A stretch of 64,000 nt of DNA from Flavobacteriaceae bacterium (GTDB lineage: Bacteria; Bacteroidota; Bacteroidia; Flavobacteriales; Flavobacteriaceae): NCBI GenBank assembly GCA_947451525.1, contig CANFZM010000012.1, forward strand, positions 1 to 64,000, in the 5' to 3' direction. Positions 25,180-63,713 of the stretch are shown in pieces. The notes beneath the pieces were generated by a model. That model searched no databases. It saw nothing but the letters and a program-made list of their open reading frames with translations, and was not told the DNA's origin. Positions within the stretch are counted from its first letter, which is position 1, and each line of letters begins with the position of its first letter. Position numbers and translations under genes: made by a program.

Positions 25180-25409
25180 GAGCGAAACAGTTGGCATTTT
25201 TGTAAAGGTCTTTCCCGCTTTTCGTTACAATCTGTCAAGCGAGGCATGAAGCAGTCCAATAACACGAATTGGATTCGCAATGCCAGGATTTCCTCTGCAA
25301 TCAGGGCTAGATTGGTTATGTCTTTTGTAAAAATAGGATTAACCACCACCTTGTCATTCCGACGCAGGAGGACACGAGCGTTAGCGAACTGGCGAAGCAA
25401 TCTCATCAT
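25180..25409. repeat. Decayed dispersed repeat region
   Basis: This stretch has higher GC than its surroundings and includes a copy of the GTCATTCCGACGCAGGAGG family at 25352-25371. A 77-codon minus-strand reading frame spans it (ends KRERPLQKCQLFRS), but its composition and repeat content suggest a chance frame over a repetitive element. From 25122 to 25620 I see only the terminator, this repeat and a promoter. Confidence 0.6.
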
Positions 25410-35906: not shown

Positions 35907-35994
35907 GATTTCGAAAATTAGTTTCCCTACTCGTTTGGCTTTTCGGTTACGCCCCGTTTATAATTGGTTTCTGGACTCCACATTTTATATTTAT

Positions 35995-38852: not shown

Positions 38853-39201
38853 AATTTTTGTTTTATAATTTTGCCTACTCTAAACGGTTTTCGGCTTCCC
38901 CGTTAGTTGTATTTAGTAGTTTATATTTTCTTTTTGTAATGCAAAATCAATAGTTGTACATTTTTACTTTCCAATAATAAAATTAATTGTTGGATGATTT
39001 TGCTTACATAAAGTTCTGAAAATAAGTGCTATTACTGTTATAAAAAAGTATAGTGTAATTTATATAATTTACATTTTAAAGAAATGGGGGAATTAATTTA
39101 TTGCACTAATTGAAAACAGATATTTTTCTAAAAATTAGGCATGAGGAAGTATATCCTAAAATATAAAAGGAATACAGTCAAAGAAAAAAACTAAAAGTGA
39201 T
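38853..39201. other. Intergenic region upstream of the RPW cluster
   Basis: No gene is visible. A TGTAA/TTACA inverted pair sits at 39054-39073. The rest is AT-rich without repeats I can link to the dispersed families. Confidence 0.5.
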
Positions 39202-54988: not shown

Positions 54989-55097
54989 TGTGTCTTTTGT
55001 CTACAAATTTTTTTTTGTTGACCGATAGATAAGAGGAATTAGTCTTTCCTTTGTCGAACGAGATATATAAGGAATGATAAAATATTTATTTGAAAAA

Positions 55098-55454
55098 ATG
55101 AAAAAACCTATAGAAAATTCGGAATTAGAAAAAGGCAAAATCCATATTATTGTTGAGATTATTGAATATATGGCCAATGCTGTGGTTAGTAAAACTATAA
55201 TAAAAAAAACCACTGGAAATATTACTGCAACTTCATTTGATGCTGGAGAAGAATTAGATGAGAAAATCACTCCTTTTGATACCTATATTCAAATTATTGA
55301 TGGTGTTGCCGAGCTCACTATTAATGATGAAAAATACAAATTAAAACTTGGTGAAGGAATAGTAATTCCGGCACATTCTAAATATCATTTTAATGCTACC
55401 GAACAATTTAAAATGATTTCTACAGTTATAAAAAGTGGTTATGAAGATTTATAG
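55098..55454 (+). CDS. Cupin domain protein
   Basis: A 118-residue single-cupin protein. Strand pattern and the segment VIPAHSKYHFNATEQ supply the second cupin motif histidines; the first motif lacks the usual H-x-H. It may bind a metal weakly or a small ligand. The in-frame ATG 24 bases upstream (55074) is also possible, but the chosen start follows a T/A-rich leader and gives a normal cupin N-terminus. Such proteins are often redox or stress related. A terminator follows. Confidence 0.75.
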   Translation: MKKPIENSELEKGKIHIIVEIIEYMANAVVSKTIIKKTTGNITATSFDAGEELDEKITPFDTYIQIIDGVAELTINDEKYKLKLGEGIVIPAHSKYHFNATEQFKMISTVIKSGYEDL

Positions 55455-55559: not shown

Positions 55560-55645
55560 ATGTAATTTATATAAATTTTTATTAAAATCTTATAATATTT
55601 TTTACCCTAAAACGTTGCAACTTTGTATCAAGGAATTCAAGTTAT
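55560..55645 (+). promoter_or_regulatory. Possible promoter of ncRNA 1
   Basis: GCAACTTTGTATCAAGGAATTCAA at 55616-55639 resembles the csbD promoter GCATCTTTGTGGTATAGGAATTCAA. Weak ATATAA and TTATAA at 55569 and 55590 again show 21-bp spacing, while a better ATGTAA is at 55560. This is weaker than the four clear promoters, and AT-rich sequence makes chance matches likely. Confidence 0.35.
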
Positions 55646-55696
55646 TTGCTTACTAATTAAGGATTACCATCAAGTAATAAAATATAGTTTACAATA

Positions 55697-55796
55697 AATT
55701 GACTTGGTTATATGGGCAACGTAGAGTTTACGGAAGACTACGAATACACGTAAGAGTCAATTACATGCACAGGAAGTTATCTTCCTGTGCTTTTTT
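55697..55796 (+). ncRNA. Candidate small RNA 1
   Basis: A core of 50 nt (55704-55753) matches 60320-60369 at 42 positions. AATTGACT at 55697 pairs with AGTCAATT at 55755 to close the core, and the segment ends in a 10-bp terminator hairpin (GCACAGGAAG, loop TTAT, CTTCCTGTGC) plus T6 at 55767-55796. No ORF is present. The surrounding 55455-56124 gap has only this, the terminator and two promoter segments. The family is not identified; comparison with the Flavo-1 RNA of Flavobacteria would be a first test. Confidence 0.65.
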
Positions 55797-56010
55797 ATTT
55801 TAATTACAGATAACCTAGCTACTTTCTTAATTTGTTTTAGATATCTCTTAATTTCTTGATTTTGTAATTTCACCTTTCTTTTAGACTACCTTTAAAAAAA
55901 ATACTTATCAATTAGTACTTTTAAATTTCTGTTATTTTTATTAGAGTCTTTCCATTTAAAATAAAGCAGGAACTATCTTACCTATTTAAAAATAAAAAAG
56001 CTTCAATAAA

Positions 56011-56076
56011 CGTGGGATTTATGTAACTTTTTTATGGATTTATGCAATTACTATCGCGTTACTAGTTACAACTTTG
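56011..56076 (+). promoter_or_regulatory. Stress-island promoter A (AraC regulator)
   Basis: ATGTAA at 56021 and ATGCAA at 56042 are in direct orientation, 21 bp apart, and each is preceded by GGATTT. TTTG follows at 56073, 31 bp after the second half-site start. It lies 49 bp before the AraC-type gene, so autoregulation is plausible. Confidence 0.7.
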
Positions 56077-56124
56077 TCTATTGTAATTTTAAAGTTTCAA
56101 GAATTGACTTAAATCAATATTTAT

Positions 56125-56691
56125 ATGAAGTTATTTATCAAATATATGGTAAGCACTCGTTGCAAAATGGTTGTAAAAGAGGAGCTTAAGAAAATAGGAC
56201 TTCATTTTGTTTTTGTCGATTTGGGAGAGATAGAAATCATGGAAAACATTACTGACGAAAAAAGAGCGCTATTAAAAAAGGGCTTACTTAATTCTGGTTT
56301 GGAATTGATGGAGGACAAAAAAGCAATTTTAATTGAGAAAATTAAAAATGTAATTATTGAAATGGTTCATTATTCAGAGGAAATCCCTAAGGTGAACTAT
56401 TCCGATTACATCAGTGAAAAACTGAACCATGACTATACTTATCTATCCAATATTTTTTCGGAAGTAAAAGGGATGACCATTCAGCAATTTATTATTAATC
56501 ATAAAATTGAGCGAGCTAAAGAATTACTGCTTTATGATGAATATAATTTGACAGAAATTTCTTACAAATTAAACTACAGTAGTGTGGCTCATTTATCCAA
56601 TCAATTTAAAAAAATAACTGGATTAACGCCATCTCATTTCAAAAAATTAAAAGAAAAAAGAAGAAATCCAATAGAAGAAATAGGAGACTAA
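56125..56691 (+). CDS. AraC-type regulator with HMA-like N-terminal domain
   Basis: A 188-residue protein. The last 100 residues are an AraC DNA-binding domain (LNHDYTYLSNIFSEVKGMT and LTEISYKLNYSSVAHLSNQFKKITGLTPS). The first 80 (MKLFIKYMVSTRCKMVVKEELKK and DLGEIEIME) have a beta-alpha-beta-beta-alpha pattern like small metal-binding ferredoxin folds, with one cysteine. The architecture is common in Bacteroidetes, but its signal is unknown. It is four bases ahead of a hybrid kinase gene and behind a direct-repeat promoter. I infer that it binds those repeats. Confidence 0.85.
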   Translation: MKLFIKYMVSTRCKMVVKEELKKIGLHFVFVDLGEIEIMENITDEKRALLKKGLLNSGLELMEDKKAILIEKIKNVIIEMVHYSEEIPKVNYSDYISEKLNHDYTYLSNIFSEVKGMTIQQFIINHKIERAKELLLYDEYNLTEISYKLNYSSVAHLSNQFKKITGLTPSHFKKLKEKRRNPIEEIGD

Positions 56692-56695
56692 ATTT

Positions 56696-59455
56696 ATGAG
56701 AAATACAGAAAATCAATATGCTAGAAGTTTAATAGAAGCAAGTTCCGATCCTTTGGTAACCTTAGATTTTGATGGTAAAATCACCGATTTAAATCAAGGC
56801 ACTGTGACGATTACGGGATTGACCCGAGAAGCTCTTATTGATTCTAACTACATTGATTACTTTAATGAACCACAAAAGGCTCGTGAGGTTTACCAAGAGA
56901 TTTTTGCCAAAGGAGTTATAGAAGATTGCCATTTAACAATGAAGCATGTTGGTGGAAAATTAACCAATGTATTAATAAACGGTTTTGCATTAAAAAATAA
57001 TATTGGCGACATTCTAGGAGTAGTAATTGTTGCTAGAGATATTGAAAAACAAAAATGGGCATTAGATTTACGAATTGCAAATAAAGAACTTGCTTTTCAA
57101 AATGACGAAAAAGAAAAACGCGCCAATGAGCTTACTATAGCTAATAAAGAGTTAGCTTTTCAGAACAAAGAAAAAGAAAAACGAGCCAATGAATTATTGA
57201 TTGCTAATGAAGAATTGGCCTACCAAAATTTAGTAAAAGAAAAACGTGCATCAGAATTAATCATTGCAAATGATGAGTTAGCTTTTCAGAATAAAGAAAA
57301 AGCTAAACGTGCAGATGAATTATTAATTGCCAATAAAGAGCTAGAATTTCAAACAGGAGAAAAAAAGCATCGTGCCGATGAGCTAAAAATTGCCGATAAA
57401 GAGCTTAATTTTCAGAATAAAGAAAAGGCAAAACGAATAGTTGAAAGCAATGAATTACAAGCTTATAACTCTTCTTTGAAATTAGCTTCTCAATATTCTT
57501 TAAGTTTAATTGAAGCAAGTCGTGACCCACTTTTTACTATTAGTTTAGATGGTAAAATTATGGATACCAATCAAGCTTCTGTTAGAGTTACAGATGTTTC
57601 TAAAGAAGATTTAATTGGTTCCGATTTCATTCAATATTTTACAGATCCAGAATTGGCTAAAAAAGGATATGAAGAAGTTTTTTCTAAAGAATTTGTAGTA
57701 GATTTCCCTTTAGTGTTAATTGATGGTGCTCTCACCAATGTAATATTTAATGGGTCTGTTTTTAAAGATATTGATGGAAATGTAATTGGAGCCGTTATGG
57801 TTGCCAGGGATATTACCGAACTTAAAAAAGCTGAAAACGAGTTGATTGAAGCAAAAGCCTTTGCAGAGTTAGCAACTGAAATTGCCGAAAAAGCTTTAAT
57901 AAAAGCTGAGGAAGCTACAAGATTAGCTATAGATTCGGTAAAAGCTAAACAGCAGTTTTTATCTAATATGAGCCATGAAATAAGAACTCCAATGAATGCC
58001 ATTATTGGATTTACTAAAGTGATTTTAAAAACCGACTTAACAGCAAAGCAACAAGAATACCTACAAGCAATAAAAACCAGTGGAGATGCATTAATTGTAT
58101 TAATAAACGATATATTAGATTTGGCCAAAGTAGATTCGGGTAAGATGTCATTTGAAAAAGTATCCTTTAAAATGGCAAAATCTATTGCAGCTATGTTGCA
58201 TTTATTTGATATAAAAAGTCAAGAAAAAAATGTACAGCTAATTAAAGAATACGATTCTTCAATTCCCGAAATAGTAATTGGAGACCCAGTTCGATTAAAC
58301 CAAATAATTTTAAATCTAGTTAGCAATGCCGTTAAATTTACCATGCATGGGAAAATAATTGTTAGTGTTAAATTGGTAGAAGAAACAGCAGAAGATGTTG
58401 TAATTGAATTTGCAGTTTCGGATACAGGTATTGGTATTAAAGAATCTAAAATTGAAAGTATTTTCGAGAATTTCCAACAAGCTTCTAGCGGAACCTCCCG
58501 TATATATGGAGGGACTGGTTTAGGACTTGCCATTGTGAAACAATTAGTAGAAGCACAAGGAGGTACAATTAATGTGCAGAGCGTTCCCGATGAAGGTTCT
58601 ACATTTAGTTTCAGATTGTCTTTTCAAAAAACCAATTCTAGTGTAGAAATTGTTGAAGAGTTTTTCTCTTTAGATTCGGATTTAAAGAATATAAATGTTT
58701 TGGTTGTAGAGGATATTGCTTTGAATCAGTTGCTAATGCGGACGCTTTTGGATGATTTTGGGTTTAATTGTGAAATTGCTTCCAATGGAAAAATTGCAGT
58801 TGAAAAATTTCAATTGAAACATTTCGATATTGTTTTAATGGATTTGCAAATGCCAGTTATGAATGGATTTGAAACTACAGAATACATTAGAAAAATTTTA
58901 AAATCTAATGTTCCCATAATTGCACTTACGGCAGATGTTACTACAGTTGATTTACAAAAATGCAAAGCAGTTGGCATGAACGATTATGTTTCTAAACCAG
59001 TAGATGAACGTTTATTGTATAGTAAAATTATTGGAATTTTAAAGAAAGCAAATCCAACCACACCTGAAATTGTTACTGAAAAATTAGAAACAAAAGTAAA
59101 GTGTATTGATTTGAATTATCTAATGCAACGTACTAAATCCAACCCTAAATTGATGTCGGAAATGATTGCGTTGTATCTAGAACAAACCCCACCATTAATA
59201 GCCAGTATGCGACAGAGTTTTGATACTAAAGATTGGGCTACTTTGCAAGCAACGGTTCACAAAATGATTCCATCGTTTTCTATAGTTGGAATTAATAATA
59301 ATTTTGAACTTATGGCAAAGAAAATACAAGAATTTGCCAATGAACAGTCGGAGGAAGAATCTATTCCCGACATGGTGTTACAACTTGAAAATATTTGTTT
59401 TCAAGCATGTAGAGAATTAGAAGAAGAACTGAATATCATAAAAAATTTAAGCTAA
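56696..59455 (+). CDS. Hybrid sensor histidine kinase with PAS domains, receiver and HPt
   Basis: A 919-residue cytoplasmic protein with no membrane helix. PAS 1 spans about 8-125. A coiled-coil of six 21-residue repeats (unit like ANKELAFQNKEKEKRANEL) spans about 125-262, and PAS 2 about 263-385. The HisKA histidine is H427 (SHEIRTPMN) and is followed by the ATPase domain (VSDTGIGIKESK, GGTGLGLAIVKQL). The receiver aspartate is D716 (VLMDLQMPVMNG) and the HPt histidine H855 (ATVHKMIPSFSIVG). All relay residues are present, so a full phosphorelay in one chain is likely. It overlaps the next receiver gene by one base (TAATG). Confidence 0.95.
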   Translation: MRNTENQYARSLIEASSDPLVTLDFDGKITDLNQGTVTITGLTREALIDSNYIDYFNEPQKAREVYQEIFAKGVIEDCHLTMKHVGGKLTNVLINGFALKNNIGDILGVVIVARDIEKQKWALDLRIANKELAFQNDEKEKRANELTIANKELAFQNKEKEKRANELLIANEELAYQNLVKEKRASELIIANDELAFQNKEKAKRADELLIANKELEFQTGEKKHRADELKIADKELNFQNKEKAKRIVESNELQAYNSSLKLASQYSLSLIEASRDPLFTISLDGKIMDTNQASVRVTDVSKEDLIGSDFIQYFTDPELAKKGYEEVFSKEFVVDFPLVLIDGALTNVIFNGSVFKDIDGNVIGAVMVARDITELKKAENELIEAKAFAELATEIAEKALIKAEEATRLAIDSVKAKQQFLSNMSHEIRTPMNAIIGFTKVILKTDLTAKQQEYLQAIKTSGDALIVLINDILDLAKVDSGKMSFEKVSFKMAKSIAAMLHLFDIKSQEKNVQLIKEYDSSIPEIVIGDPVRLNQIILNLVSNAVKFTMHGKIIVSVKLVEETAEDVVIEFAVSDTGIGIKESKIESIFENFQQASSGTSRIYGGTGLGLAIVKQLVEAQGGTINVQSVPDEGSTFSFRLSFQKTNSSVEIVEEFFSLDSDLKNINVLVVEDIALNQLLMRTLLDDFGFNCEIASNGKIAVEKFQLKHFDIVLMDLQMPVMNGFETTEYIRKILKSNVPIIALTADVTTVDLQKCKAVGMNDYVSKPVDERLLYSKIIGILKKANPTTPEIVTEKLETKVKCIDLNYLMQRTKSNPKLMSEMIALYLEQTPPLIASMRQSFDTKDWATLQATVHKMIPSFSIVGINNNFELMAKKIQEFANEQSEEESIPDMVLQLENICFQACRELEEELNIIKNLS

Positions 59456-59889
59456 TGCAAACTGAAAATAAAATAAAACTGTTCCTTGTAGATGATGATG
59501 CCTTGTTTCTAAAATCATTAGAAATAGAATTTTTAGATCATGCAGATTTTACTATCCATACTTTTGCTACTGGTGAATTATGTATGGAAAGTATTAATGA
59601 AAATCCAGATATAGTTATTTTAGATTTTCATCTGGATGGTATTAATAAAGGAGCTATGAATGGTTTAGATACTTTAGATAAGATTAAAATTTTTAATCCT
59701 GAAATACCAGTTATTATGTTGTCTTCACAAGACAAAATTGAAGTAGCTATTAAATGCATGCACCACAAAGCATCCGATTATGTTGTGAAAAGTGAAACTG
59801 CTTTTTTTAGATTAAAACAAATAATTACTAATCTACTTCATTCTCAAAAGGTTGAAAAAACCCTCCATTGGTACATGAATAAAATGTAA
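59455..59889 (+). CDS. Stand-alone response regulator receiver
   Basis: A 144-residue single-domain receiver. FLVDDDAL gives the acidic pocket, D57 (IVILDFHLDG) the phosphoacceptor, VIMLSSQD the serine/threonine position and YVVKSE the lysine. There is no output domain. It is probably the terminal acceptor from the kinase HPt H855 and may act by binding another protein, possibly the AraC regulator. A terminator follows. Confidence 0.93.
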   Translation: MQTENKIKLFLVDDDALFLKSLEIEFLDHADFTIHTFATGELCMESINENPDIVILDFHLDGINKGAMNGLDTLDKIKIFNPEIPVIMLSSQDKIEVAIKCMHHKASDYVVKSETAFFRLKQIITNLLHSQKVEKTLHWYMNKM

Positions 59890-59937
59890 ATAAAAAAGGA
59901 AAGAATTTTTTCTTATTAAACATAAAATATTTTTTAT

Positions 59938-59968
59938 AAAAGCACTATTTAATTATGGTGCTTTTTTT
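59938..59968 (+). terminator. Intrinsic terminator
   Basis: An 8-bp stem (AAAAGCAC and complement) with a 12-base loop followed by T-run, ending the AraC-kinase-receiver transcript. Confidence 0.75.
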
Positions 59969-59986
59969 ATGTTAAATAATTGACAA

Positions 59987-60053
59987 TGTGGGATATGTGT
60001 AATATTAAACATTTTGCTTGTAATAATTTAAGTGTTATTTGAACGCATCTTTG
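59987..60053 (+). promoter_or_regulatory. Stress-island promoter B (csbD)
   Basis: GTGTAA at 59997 and TTGTAA at 60018 are 21 bp apart. TGTGGGATAT precedes the first, and TTTG follows at 60050, 32 bp after the second. An ATTTGAACGCAT stretch before TTTG matches promoter D. Confidence 0.7.
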
Positions 60054-60088
60054 TGGTATAGGAATTCAATATATAAACACAAAAAAAG

Positions 60089-60265
60089 ATGGAAGCTAAG
60101 CACGACAAAATTAAGGAAGAAATTAAAATTTCTGGAGATTGGAATAAAAAAGCAGCTGCATTAAAAGAGAAATTTTCTCATTTAACAGAACCTGATTTGA
60201 AATTGGAAAAAGATAAAGAAGACGAATGGAATAAACGAAAAGATTCATTTGTTCCAAAAAAATAG
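60089..60265 (+). CDS. CsbD family stress protein
   Basis: A 58-residue charged helical protein too short for standard ORF tracks. It resembles CsbD: KIKEEIKISGDWNKKAAALK followed by KFSHLTEPDLKLEKDKEDEW, the usual small helix-loop layout with a conserved G-x-W. CsbD is induced by general stress in many bacteria; its molecular role is unknown. The start follows promoter B by about 36 bp. A candidate RNA lies 46 bp downstream. Confidence 0.75.
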   Translation: MEAKHDKIKEEIKISGDWNKKAAALKEKFSHLTEPDLKLEKDKEDEWNKRKDSFVPKK

Positions 60266-60311
60266 CAGTAAGTTAATAATAACAATAATAAGTTAAATCA
60301 ATAACAATAAA

Positions 60312-60410
60312 TTTTCGGCTTGATTATGTGGGCAACCTAGAATTTACGTAATACTATGAATACATGTAATGGCCAATAAAAACGCAGGAATTTATTACCC
60401 TGCGTTTTTT
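60312..60410 (+). ncRNA. Candidate small RNA 2
   Basis: Its core (60320-60369) matches 55704-55753 at 42 of 50 positions. A terminator hairpin (ACGCAGG with CCTGCGT at 60382-60405) and T6 follow. The closing stem is weaker than in copy 1 (GGCT with GGCC, four pairs). One inner pair changes from G-C to G-U. It may be the 3' part of the csbD transcript or a processed RNA. No gene is visible in 60266-60714 apart from this and promoter C. Confidence 0.65.
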
Positions 60411-60560
60411 AATTTAATTAAAGTTAGATAAAAATATAAGTTAGAATAGTTCCTTAAAAAATCGAATTAGCATTTGAAAATCGAAAGAGTCTTAAATCTT
60501 GATTGTTGAAGTTTAAACTATTAAACATTAGCCATGCAAACTTTTTTTGAATAAAGGATA

Positions 60561-60631
60561 TGGGATTTATGTAATTCATTTACAATATGATGTAACATTT
60601 TTTTTATAATAATAAAGACCTTTATGCTTTG
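60561..60631 (+). promoter_or_regulatory. Stress-island promoter C (dps 2)
   Basis: ATGTAA at 60569 and 60590 are 21 bp apart, with TGGGATTT before the first. TTTA follows at 60621, 31 bp after the second, and CTTTG at 60627. The dps start is about 90 bp beyond. Confidence 0.7.
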
Positions 60632-60714
60632 TTAGAGATACTCAAATTCAAAATAAGCGTAAGTGATTTTTGGTTTGCAGATAACATTTAGAATAATATT
60701 TAAAAACAACGATT

Positions 60715-61185
60715 ATGAAAACAAATATCGGAATTTCAGAAAAAAACTCCCAGTTAGTAGTAGACCAATTGGCAAGGATTTTAGCAGACGAATATGTATT
60801 ATATACAAAAACCAGAAATGCGCATTGGAATGTAGAAGGCGCTGATTTTTATGAGAAACATAAATTTTTTGAAATGCAATACATGCAATTAGAGGAGTTT
60901 ATTGACAAAATTGCCGAACGAATTCGTACCCTAGGATTTTATACCCCAGCAACTTTAGCTTCTTTTTTGAGTTTAACACAACTAACAGAATTTAGCAGAG
61001 AAAAAAACGATAGTAATGGATTTATTAAAGAATTACTAATGGATCATGAAAGCATTATTTTCAAATTGAGAGAAAACATAAATAGTTTCGCAACAGATTT
61101 ACACGATTTAGGATCAAGTGACTTCATTACAGGACTAATGGAAGATCACGAAAAAATGGCTTGGTTACTACGTTCACACCTTTAA
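60715..61185 (+). CDS. dps: Dps family ferritin-like protein 2
   Basis: A 156-residue four-helix protein with the ferroxidase ligands in TRNAHWNVEGADFYEKHKFFE and MEDHEKMAWLLRSHL at the end. It differs strongly from the OxyR-linked Dps at 32300 and is more like the Dps of general stress islands. It protects DNA and stores iron. It is 10 bp upstream of the universal stress protein gene, so the two form one transcript from promoter C. Confidence 0.92.
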   Translation: MKTNIGISEKNSQLVVDQLARILADEYVLYTKTRNAHWNVEGADFYEKHKFFEMQYMQLEEFIDKIAERIRTLGFYTPATLASFLSLTQLTEFSREKNDSNGFIKELLMDHESIIFKLRENINSFATDLHDLGSSDFITGLMEDHEKMAWLLRSHL

Positions 61186-61195
61186 AAAATTAAAA

Positions 61196-61675
61196 ATGGA
61201 AACACAAAAAAAAGTCTTAATAGCAATAGACTATAATACCAATGCTACTAAAATTGTAGATATAGCTTATTCATTTGCAAAAGCTATGAAAGCGGAAATC
61301 ACTTTGATACACGTTGTGGAAAATGAAGTGTATTACACCTCATTTATCACTTCCCCAATTACGGGAATCGTTGATTTTGATAGCGCCACATTTTACCAAT
61401 ATATGAATAGCGAAAGTTTGATTTCTGCCGCTAACTACTATTTGGATAAAATAAAAAAACATTTAAAAGATTCCAAAGTTCATACTATTGTTGAAAGAGG
61501 AAACTTTGCAGATGTAATTTTAAGTACTGCAAAAGATCTTAAGGTAGACCTAATTATTATGGGGTCCCATAGTCAAAAATGGTTAGAACAAGTTTTGATT
61601 GGCAGTACCACAGAAAAAGTATTAAACCATACCCAAATTCCATTACTAATTATTCCAACTAAGAGGAAAAAGTAA
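61196..61675 (+). CDS. Universal stress protein
   Basis: A 159-residue single-domain Usp. It starts KKVLIAIDYNTNATKI and ends with IIMGSHSQKWLEQVLIGSTTEKVL, the nucleotide-binding G-x2-G-x9-G-S/T pattern. It would bind ATP or a nucleotide and act under starvation or stress. It is cotranscribed with dps 2. Confidence 0.92.
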   Translation: METQKKVLIAIDYNTNATKIVDIAYSFAKAMKAEITLIHVVENEVYYTSFITSPITGIVDFDSATFYQYMNSESLISAANYYLDKIKKHLKDSKVHTIVERGNFADVILSTAKDLKVDLIIMGSHSQKWLEQVLIGSTTEKVLNHTQIPLLIIPTKRKK

Positions 61676-61682
61676 ACTAATA

Positions 61683-61748
61683 GTGGCATTTGTGTAATTT
61701 ATACTTCGTAATGTGTAACACAACTCGCTTCATTTGATGTCACCTTTG
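61683..61748 (+). promoter_or_regulatory. Stress-island promoter D (Lmo0937-type gene)
   Basis: GTGTAA at 61692 and 61713 are 21 bp apart, preceded by TAGTGGCATT. TTTG follows at 61745, 32 bp after the second. The bases around it (CATTTGATGTCACCTTTGTA) resemble promoter B. Confidence 0.7.
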
Positions 61749-61793: not shown

Positions 61794-61952
61794 ATGAACA
61801 ATTTACTTTATTTAATAGCAGTACTTCTTGTTATTTTTTGGGCTTTAGGATTCTTAGTTTATAACACTGGTGGAATTATTCACATCCTCCTTGTAATTGC
61901 TGTAATAGCAATACTTTTAAGAATAATAAGCGGAAAAGGCATAACGAAATAA
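61794..61952 (+). CDS. Lmo0937-type small membrane protein
   Basis: A 52-residue protein of two membrane helices joined by a short turn (MNNLLYLIAVLLVIFWALG, then NTGGIIHILLVIAVIAILLR). It fits the small Lmo0937/DUF5670 family, often found near stress genes and induced under stress; function unknown. The ATG follows promoter D by 46 bp. It precedes the barrel gene by 41 bp. Confidence 0.8.
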   Translation: MNNLLYLIAVLLVIFWALGFLVYNTGGIIHILLVIAVIAILLRIISGKGITK

Positions 61953-63499: not shown

Positions 63500-63713
63500 C
63501 AAGTTCCAATGCAAACTTAAATCCTCTCTTTGGATTAGGATTTTTTTCAGAAGCCAATCCAGCTATCCATTCCAAGTTTGCTCGTAAAAACCTTTTTTTC
63601 TAAGCCTAAAAACGTGCTCCTGACGTCGCAGTTTTTAGGCAAGAAAAAATAGCTTTTTCCTTCACAAAGCTTTCCATTACTATCTGGGCTAGGGCAGTAG
63701 AATTAAATTCAAC
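63500..63713. other. Intergenic region with palindrome, no gene
   Basis: Overlapping frames on both strands are of the same GC-rich look and share repetitive features, so I treat them as chance. An inverted repeat GCCTAAAAAC (63604-63613) with GTTTTTAGGC (63631-63640) is clear. The segment may be another dispersed repeat of the genome. Confidence 0.5.

What the first reader, a model, noticed from the sequence alone, without database searches (positions are those of the whole stretch)
56011..61748. Four promoters of a stress island share a direct repeat with exact 21-bp spacing
Before the AraC-type gene, csbD, dps 2 and the Lmo0937-type gene, two (A/G/T)TG(T/C)AA half-sites occur in the same orientation with start-to-start spacing of 21 bp each time (56021/56042, 59997/60018, 60569/60590, 61692/61713). 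Each is preceded by TGGGAT/TGGCAT-like sequence, and each pair lies 31 or 32 bp before a TTTG/TTTA core-promoter element. Two tandem half-sites on one face of the helix are the geometry used by AraC-family dimers (as at the E. coli ara I1/I2 sites), and such a protein is encoded in the island. This points to a local regulon, with the AraC protein as the likely binder. The regulator-to-site link is inference.
Basis: partly seen in the sequence, partly recalled or inferred. Interest (0 to 1): 0.85.

Follow-up and report, generated by a model that had tools for sequence, protein, structure and literature searches.

The report
Phylum-wide AraC stress-gene switch
The same pair of DNA boxes, 21 bases apart, stands before stress-protection genes in many Bacteroidota, and is likely read by one small AraC-type protein, which would make that protein a predicted general stress switch for this phylum.

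Summary
Confirmed. All four promoters carry the pair at the stated places; a fifth site at 55570 was missed. A profile trained without the window scores the five sites 30.0, 28.7, 23.6, 19.2 and 13.9; the next best place in the window scores 6.2. The element is not local: in the window and 80 ortholog loci it gives 186 matches against 1 in reversed sequence. Of 189 sites, 187 lie outside long reading frames and 171 have TTTG/TTTA 30 or 31 bp downstream. Targets include csbD, ytxH, lmo0937-type, dps, usp, hsp20 and ompA-type genes. The likely binder is the island's 188-aa protein, a predicted HMA-like domain fused to an AraC DNA-binding domain. Of 247 genomes, 44 have strong sites and 42 of these encode the family, against 117 of 247 overall. 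In 11 of 23 single-site genomes the site lies within 700 bp of such a gene. In 33 of 89 regulator genes with an adjacent site the operator contains the regulator's stop codon. Binding and activation are untested; 75 of the 117 genomes show no site at this cut-off, and several genomes have sites but no detectable ortholog.

The parts
55561..55596 (+). fifth operator (TGTAATTTATATAAA ... TATAAT, 21 bp), TTTG at 55622, before a putative small RNA
   Evidence: profile score 24.6, 23.6 held out; model E 4.9e-6 in the host genome
55622..55800 (+). putative small RNA with terminator-like hairpin; related to the csbD 3' region at 60275-60418
   Evidence: nhmmer match between the two; alignment and consensus fold of 4 copies, almost no covariation; no Rfam match
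56013..56048 (+). operator before the AraC-type gene; TTTG at 56073
   Evidence: profile score 31.1, 28.7 held out
56125..56691 (+). 188-aa HMA-like/AraC regulator, likely binder
   Evidence: Pfam HTH_18; AlphaFold2 pLDDT 90.5; Foldseek
56696..59455 (+). PAS-PAS-HisKA-HATPase-REC hybrid kinase directly after the regulator; possible signal input (guess)
   Evidence: Pfam
59455..59889 (+). receiver-only response regulator, no DNA-binding domain found
   Evidence: Pfam: Response_reg only, residues 10-114 of 144
59989..60024 (+). operator before the csbD-like gene; TTTG at 60050
   Evidence: profile score 17.9, 13.9 held out, inside the Markov null
60089..60265 (+). 58-aa CsbD-like protein
   Evidence: grouped with CsbD-like downstream proteins of other loci (cluster 0); no Pfam match on its own
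60561..60596 (+). operator before dps; TTTA at 60621
   Evidence: profile score 32.2, 30.0 held out
60715..61185 (+). Dps-like ferritin
   Evidence: Pfam Ferritin; NCBIfam Dps model, below its cut-off
61196..61675 (+). universal stress protein, 10 bp after dps, likely same transcript
   Evidence: Pfam Usp
61684..61719 (+). operator before the Lmo0937-family gene; TTTG at 61745
   Evidence: profile score 23.0, 19.2 held out
61794..61952 (+). Lmo0937-family membrane protein (DUF5670)
   Evidence: NCBIfam NF033488 and Pfam PF18919, both above cut-off

Best explanation
A conserved operator, TGTGAATnATGTAAC followed 21 bp later by RTTRTGTAAC (TGGGATTTATGTAAY-like in this genome), lies 30-31 bp before the TTTG of stress-gene promoters in many Bacteroidota and is likely bound by the HMA-AraC protein encoded in the island, which is predicted to activate these genes and its own. 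Inferred mechanism: two protein molecules sit head to tail, one per repeat, each placing its two helix-turn-helix units on box A and box B. The downstream molecule covers the -35 region and would recruit the housekeeping RNA polymerase to a promoter whose -7 box mostly lacks the usual TA. The signal would arrive through the HMA-like domain, which in most orthologs has lost the first Cys of the CxxC but keeps one invariant Cys, or through the kinase encoded next to the regulator; this step is a guess. The output is a general-stress-like set: CsbD, Dps, Usp, Hsp20, YtxH, Lmo0937, gly-zipper and OmpA-type proteins.
For: 186 matches against 1 in reversed sequence, 1.1 Mb. 171 of 189 sites have TTTG/TTTA at exactly 30 or 31 bp, none at 22-29. 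42 of 44 genomes with sites at E <= 1e-4 have the family, against 117 of 247 overall; Fisher 9e-14, kinship not corrected. 15 of 18 genomes with a close ortholog (E < 1e-81) have sites. 11 of 23 single-site genomes have the site within 700 bp of a family gene. 77 of 80 ortholog loci have a site, 41 of them directly before (15) or after (26) the regulator. In 33 of 89 regulator genes with an adjacent site, TGTAA starts exactly 7 nt after the first base of the stop codon, so the stop codon lies in box A. CsbD is found in 26 of 34 genomes with the regulator or a near paralog against 4 of 41 without. Predicted AraC domain with two HTH units. Stress-type target genes.
Against: No binding or expression data. 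At the same cut-off 75 of 117 genomes with the family have no site, and three genomes with close orthologs (G106, G160, G199) have none. G001, G002, G021, G026, G034, G035, G190 and G248 have matches (strong in G001, G021, G034 and G248) but no family member at E <= 1e-9; G070 has eight strong sites and only a diverged member. 65 of 135 sites are over 30 kb from, or on another contig than, a listed family gene. Only 15 of 30 CsbD loci in regulator-bearing genomes have a site directly upstream; 0 of 4 in the others is too few to compare. Covariation of residue 120 with base -4 rests on only 3 changes on the tree. The sites' position suggests activation but does not prove it.
Confidence: 0.78

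Rival explanations
1. Another, unidentified DNA-binding protein reads the element, and the HMA-AraC gene is only its most conserved target.
For: Genomes with sites and no detectable family member: G001, G021, G034, G035, G190, G248; the regulator is itself among the targets.
Against: Single-site genomes keep the site next to a family gene in 11 of 23; often the site serves the gene after the regulator, not the regulator (26 of 80 loci); direct-repeat geometry and box size suit an AraC domain. G001, G021, G034 and G035 are incomplete drafts (93, 86, 60 and 88%) and both G248 sites lie near contig ends, though this does not prove a missed gene.
Confidence: 0.14
2. The HMA-AraC protein binds but represses these genes, with derepression under stress.
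For: Binding at the -35 region could also block polymerase; direction of effect was not testable.
Against: Fixed 30-31 bp distance to the -7 box in 171 of 189 sites and a -7 box with TA in only 28 of 171 fit an activator at a weak promoter.
Confidence: 0.05
3. The element is a core-promoter or alternative sigma-factor motif, not an operator.
For: Fixed distance to TTTG.
Against: About 70 bp long in all with a 21-bp direct repeat upstream of a sigma-A-type -7 box; the sigma motifs reported for F. psychrophilum in the passages seen sit in the core promoter. No conserved GC element 12 bp from TGG as sigma-54 needs (profile).
Confidence: 0.02
4. Chance: short AT-rich half-sites that happen to be 21 bp apart.
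For: The csbD site scores within the Markov null.
Against: 186 against 1 in reversed sequence; 68 pairs at 21 bp against 0-13 at other spacings; four window sites above all 60 null sequences.
Confidence: 0.005

Closest known systems
E. coli AraC at araI1/I2 (recalled)
   Same: AraC-type domain; tandem sites 21 bp apart in one orientation, the downstream one at the -35 region
   Different: Predicted HMA-like domain in place of the arabinose-binding/dimerization domain; many targets rather than one operon; different box sequences
MarA/SoxS/Rob (structures matched; biology recalled)
   Same: AraC-type domain fold; stress regulon; class II placement overlapping the -35 region
   Different: MarA and SoxS bind one site as monomers and have no N-terminal domain; here a tandem pair and a second domain
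General stress regulons of sigma-B and RpoS (recalled; CsbD in sigma-B regulon papers seen as search listings)
   Same: Target types CsbD, Dps, Usp, YtxH, Lmo0937-like, Hsp20
   Different: A sigma factor there, a predicted AraC activator on sigma-A promoters here
F. psychrophilum promoter map, PMC9723704 (passages seen)
   Same: TAnnTTTG -7 box at -12 to -5
   Different: The passages shown describe sigma-factor motifs SM1-6; 'AraC' and 'Dps' occur 0 times in the main text; supplements not seen
Copper chaperone Atx1/CopZ-type HMA domains (Foldseek)
   Same: N-terminal beta-alpha-beta-beta-alpha-beta fold (probability 0.98-1.00, E 0.13-0.26)
   Different: First Cys of CxxC is Ser in 33 of 35 aligned orthologs, so metal binding is doubtful

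Membership tests
AraC/XylS family regulator | AraC-type DNA-binding domain with two HTH motifs | tested here: met
   Pfam HTH_18 2.3e-18; model helices 92-180 and Foldseek to AraC/MarA/SoxS domains
AraC/XylS family regulator | Direct-repeat operator at the promoter of its targets | tested here: met
   21-bp direct repeat at fixed distance from TTTG; binding by this protein not tested
AraC itself (sugar-responsive subgroup) | N-terminal cupin arabinose-binding and dimerization domain | tested here: not met
   N-terminus is a predicted ferredoxin-like/HMA-like fold; no AraC_binding Pfam match
HMA metal-binding domain | CxxC metal site | tested here: not met
   Ser at position 10 in 33 of 35 rows; Cys13 invariant; no HMA Pfam match at 0.001
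General stress regulon (functional class) | Targets of general stress type | tested here: met
   Of 138 of 165 distinct downstream proteins scanned: 10 OmpA, 8 YtxH, 8 CsbD, 4 DUF5670, 2 Usp, 2 Hsp20 among others
General stress regulon (functional class) | Induction by several unrelated stresses | not testable with these tools
   No expression data at hand
Sigma-54 promoter | TGGCAC-N5-TTGC (-24/-12) | tested here: not met
   Profile has TGTGAAT then ATGTAAC, no conserved TTGC; a sigma-A-type TTTG follows; consensus recalled
Crp/Fnr site | Inverted repeat TGTGA-N6-TCACA | tested here: not met
   Repeat is direct, not inverted; consensus recalled

The most novel reading that the evidence does not exclude
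The HMA-AraC protein is the general stress regulator of Bacteroidota, a functional counterpart of sigma-B and RpoS. It works as a class II activator on 21-bp tandem operators, with a degenerate metallochaperone domain as its stress sensor, and in many genomes the operator is built into the regulator gene's own stop codon.
Probability: 0.5. Interest if true: 0.88.

Novelty: new variant of a known kind. Interest (0 to 1): 0.74.

Why it matters
I know of no described master regulator of the general stress response in Bacteroidota (recalled, not a finding of a call). Seven searches of an open-access library listed no paper whose title or shown abstract describes this operator or such a regulon; subscription papers were not searched. 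A defined operator, a named regulator gene and a target list turn that gap into a direct experiment, and the profile can be run on other Bacteroidota genomes to list candidate stress genes.

Tried and rejected
Sigma-54 and Crp readings were rejected on the profile. The neighbouring receiver-only response regulator was rejected as binder because only a receiver domain was found. Residue-base covariation looked striking (residue 120 with base -4: T at 18 of 26 genes with Gln, 0 of 63 others, p 5e-13; 4 of 7 against 0 of 31 among representatives below 70% identity), but the residue changed only 3 times on the tree and the independent-pairs test cannot reach significance, so it is not used as proof. 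Residues of the first recognition helix covary with box A more than other columns do (p 0.006 over 38 representatives, kinship not corrected). A link of residue 113 with base -8 was weak (p 0.009 over 89, 0.047 over 38). The small RNA gave no Rfam match and has too few relatives for a covariation test.

Rows dropped and limits: L001-L004 (own copies of the island) were left out of the pair counts. The 59 seed sites of the profile were required to have TTTR about 29-36 bp downstream and a box-A-like start, so the TTTR statistic is independent only for the sites found later. For the Pfam tally 138 of 165 distinct downstream proteins were scanned: 14 regulator proteins and 13 of the 15 longest were left out. 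Model R1 was built from 70 sites, chosen from a printed list of 90 of the 131 non-redundant ones; 55570 was left out and the csbD site added by hand. The distance table used the 135 sites printed and only those regulator matches that one search printed, so distances are upper bounds. Searches over more than 40 genomes used stricter filters that lose weak matches.
Full report
What was checked. TGYAAY half-sites in one orientation, 21 bp start to start, stand before the AraC-type gene, a csbD-like gene, dps and the Lmo0937-family gene. Each pair is preceded by TGGGAT or TGGCAT and followed by TTTG/TTTA 30 or 31 bp after the second TGYAA. In the window, spacing 21 has 7 such pairs and no other spacing from 8 to 59 has more than 3. 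Three of the seven (22745, 27264, 27285) lack the upstream box.

The element is real and much wider than the island. The regulator's sequence brought in 80 loci from other genomes, titled as Bacteroidetes or as genera of that phylum (the best 80 of 116 matches). In the loci other than the island's own copies, spacing 21 has 68 pairs against 0 to 13 at any other. An iterated 42-column profile gives 186 matches at threshold 18 in 1.1 Mb (window and 80 loci) against 1 in the reversed sequence. The consensus is TGTGAATnATGTAAC, then RTTRTGTAAC 21 bp on. Of 189 sites above 17 (window, two own-genome loci and the 80 loci), 187 lie outside long reading frames, and 171 have TTTG or TTTA at exactly 30 (38) or 31 (133) bp; 2 have it at 32-33 and 16 have none near, and no site has TTTR at 22-29. 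The TA of TAnnTTTG is present in only 28 of these 171, although an A at that place is nearly invariant in the alignment of 70 sites. That is a weak -7 box, as expected where an activator is needed (inference).

Held-out test. A profile trained on L018-L093 only (168 sites) scores the window's five sites 30.0 (60570), 28.7 (56022), 23.6 (55570), 19.2 (61693) and 13.9 (59998); the next best place on either strand is 6.2. In 60 Markov sequences the maximum averaged 6.8 and reached 15.8, so the csbD site is convincing only because of where it lies.

The regulon. In the host genome a sequence-only model finds 11 sites at E <= 1e-4 and 16 at E <= 0.05; six of the 11 lie outside the island. After sites outside the island stand genes for a 95-aa and a 105-aa small protein, a DUF326 Cys-rich protein weakly like Csp1, a 133-aa protein without Pfam match, Hsp20, and at weaker sites a second CsbD, a beta-barrel-like protein and unnamed proteins. 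One site (C22:42172) has no gene of that strand close by. Across the 80 loci and the window, 138 of 165 distinct downstream proteins were scanned with Pfam: 11 cupin, 10 OmpA, 8 YtxH, 8 CsbD, 7 beta-barrel, 5 gly-zipper, 4 DUF5670, 4 ice-binding-like, 3 MlaE, and 2 each of BON, YceI, fatty acid desaturase, Usp, Hsp20 and histidine kinase, among 66 families. Regulator-type proteins make up 15 of the 168 downstream proteins found. A few of these families (for example ice-binding-like, MlaE) are not typical stress genes.

Who reads it. The island's 188-aa protein has an AraC domain. AlphaFold2 (pLDDT 90.5, 35 sequences) gives an N-terminal beta-alpha-beta-beta-alpha-beta fold, a long helix and a helical AraC domain. 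Foldseek matches the C-terminal part to AraC, MarA and SoxS domains and the N-terminal part, with poor E-values (0.13-0.26) but probability 0.98-1.00, to copper chaperones. In 33 of 35 orthologs the first Cys of CxxC is Ser, while Cys13 is invariant.

Four lines tie this family to the site. First, in 247 Bacteroidota genomes (at least 95% complete, save the window's own at 93.7%), 44 have sites at E <= 1e-4 and 117 have the family at E <= 1e-30; 42 of the 44 have both (Fisher 9e-14, kinship not corrected). The converse is weaker: 75 of the 117 show no site at this cut-off. Of 18 genomes with a close ortholog (E < 1e-81), 15 have sites; G106, G160 and G199 do not. Second, 23 of 135 sites lie within 500 bp of a listed family gene, and among 23 genomes with a single site it is within 700 bp in 11 and within 5 kb in 14; 65 of the 135 are farther than 30 kb or on another contig. 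Third, of 80 ortholog loci 77 have a site; in 15 it is upstream of the regulator and in 26 immediately after it. Of 144 full-length family genes examined, 89 have a site within the set distances; in 33 of the 89, TGTAA starts exactly 7 nt after the first base of the stop codon, so that the stop codon is the TGA or TAA of box A. This includes paralogs only about half identical to the window's protein (identities). Fourth, CsbD is present in 26 of 34 genomes with a close ortholog or near paralog and in 4 of 41 without. Of 30 CsbD loci fetched in the first group 15 have a site directly upstream; of 4 in the second, none.

Against it. G001, G021, G034, G035, G190 and G248 have sites but no family member at E <= 1e-9, and G070 has eight strong sites with only a diverged member. 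G001, G021, G034 and G035 are 93, 86, 60 and 88% complete and both G248 sites lie near contig ends; that may explain them but was not shown. G070 (98% complete) is not explained. At the looser E <= 0.05, 50 of 60 relatives have matches, including genomes without the family, so that cut-off is not discriminating. Residue 120 of the protein and base -4 of the operator go together (Glu: 95 of 96 sites have A; Gln: 36 of 81 have T; own genome, Gln: 7 of 7 T), but the residue changed only 3 times on the tree.

Mechanism. From the -12 to -5 position of the -7 box in F. psychrophilum (PMC9723704, passages), the second half-site would begin near -39, the first near -60 and box A near -69. That is the arrangement of ara I1/I2 (recalled): two monomers head to tail, the downstream one touching the -35 region. 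Activation, the signal, and the role of the kinase and receiver encoded next to the regulator are inferred. The receiver protein has no DNA-binding domain that Pfam recognises, so it is an unlikely binder.

Literature. Seven searches of the open-access library listed no title or shown abstract that describes this operator or an HMA-AraC regulon. Two papers were opened for passages only; no supplement was read.

Noticed in passing
window 55660-55805 and 60275-60418: Two related copies of a putative structured RNA ending in a terminator-like hairpin: one behind the fifth operator, one in the 3' region of csbD. Related copies were found only in L015 and L016 among the loci searched, and there too they follow a csbD-like gene.
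   Followed up: partly
L041-L093, 3' end of the regulator gene (for example L058:8555-8629): The operator of the next gene contains the regulator's own stop codon in 33 of 89 regulator genes with an adjacent site.
   Followed up: yes
window 55074-55454: A 126-aa cupin-like protein resembles, by eye, the cupin group that follows the operator after the regulator in other loci (cluster 1), but here it lies upstream of the regulator and has no operator of its own.
   Followed up: no
window 57039-57436: Five head-to-tail copies spaced 63 bp (21 residues) in the linker between the two PAS domains of the hybrid kinase, coding KEKRANEL-type repeats.
   Followed up: no
window 25207-25312 (-), 63552-63694 (-), 35919-35986 (-), 38872-38904 (-): Rfam matches: two Flavo-1 RNAs, one DUF805 RNA and one DUF805b RNA.
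   Followed up: no
G000:C11:27784-28341 (L166): A second HMA-AraC paralog (59% identical) in the host genome with no site near it above the profile threshold.
   Followed up: partly
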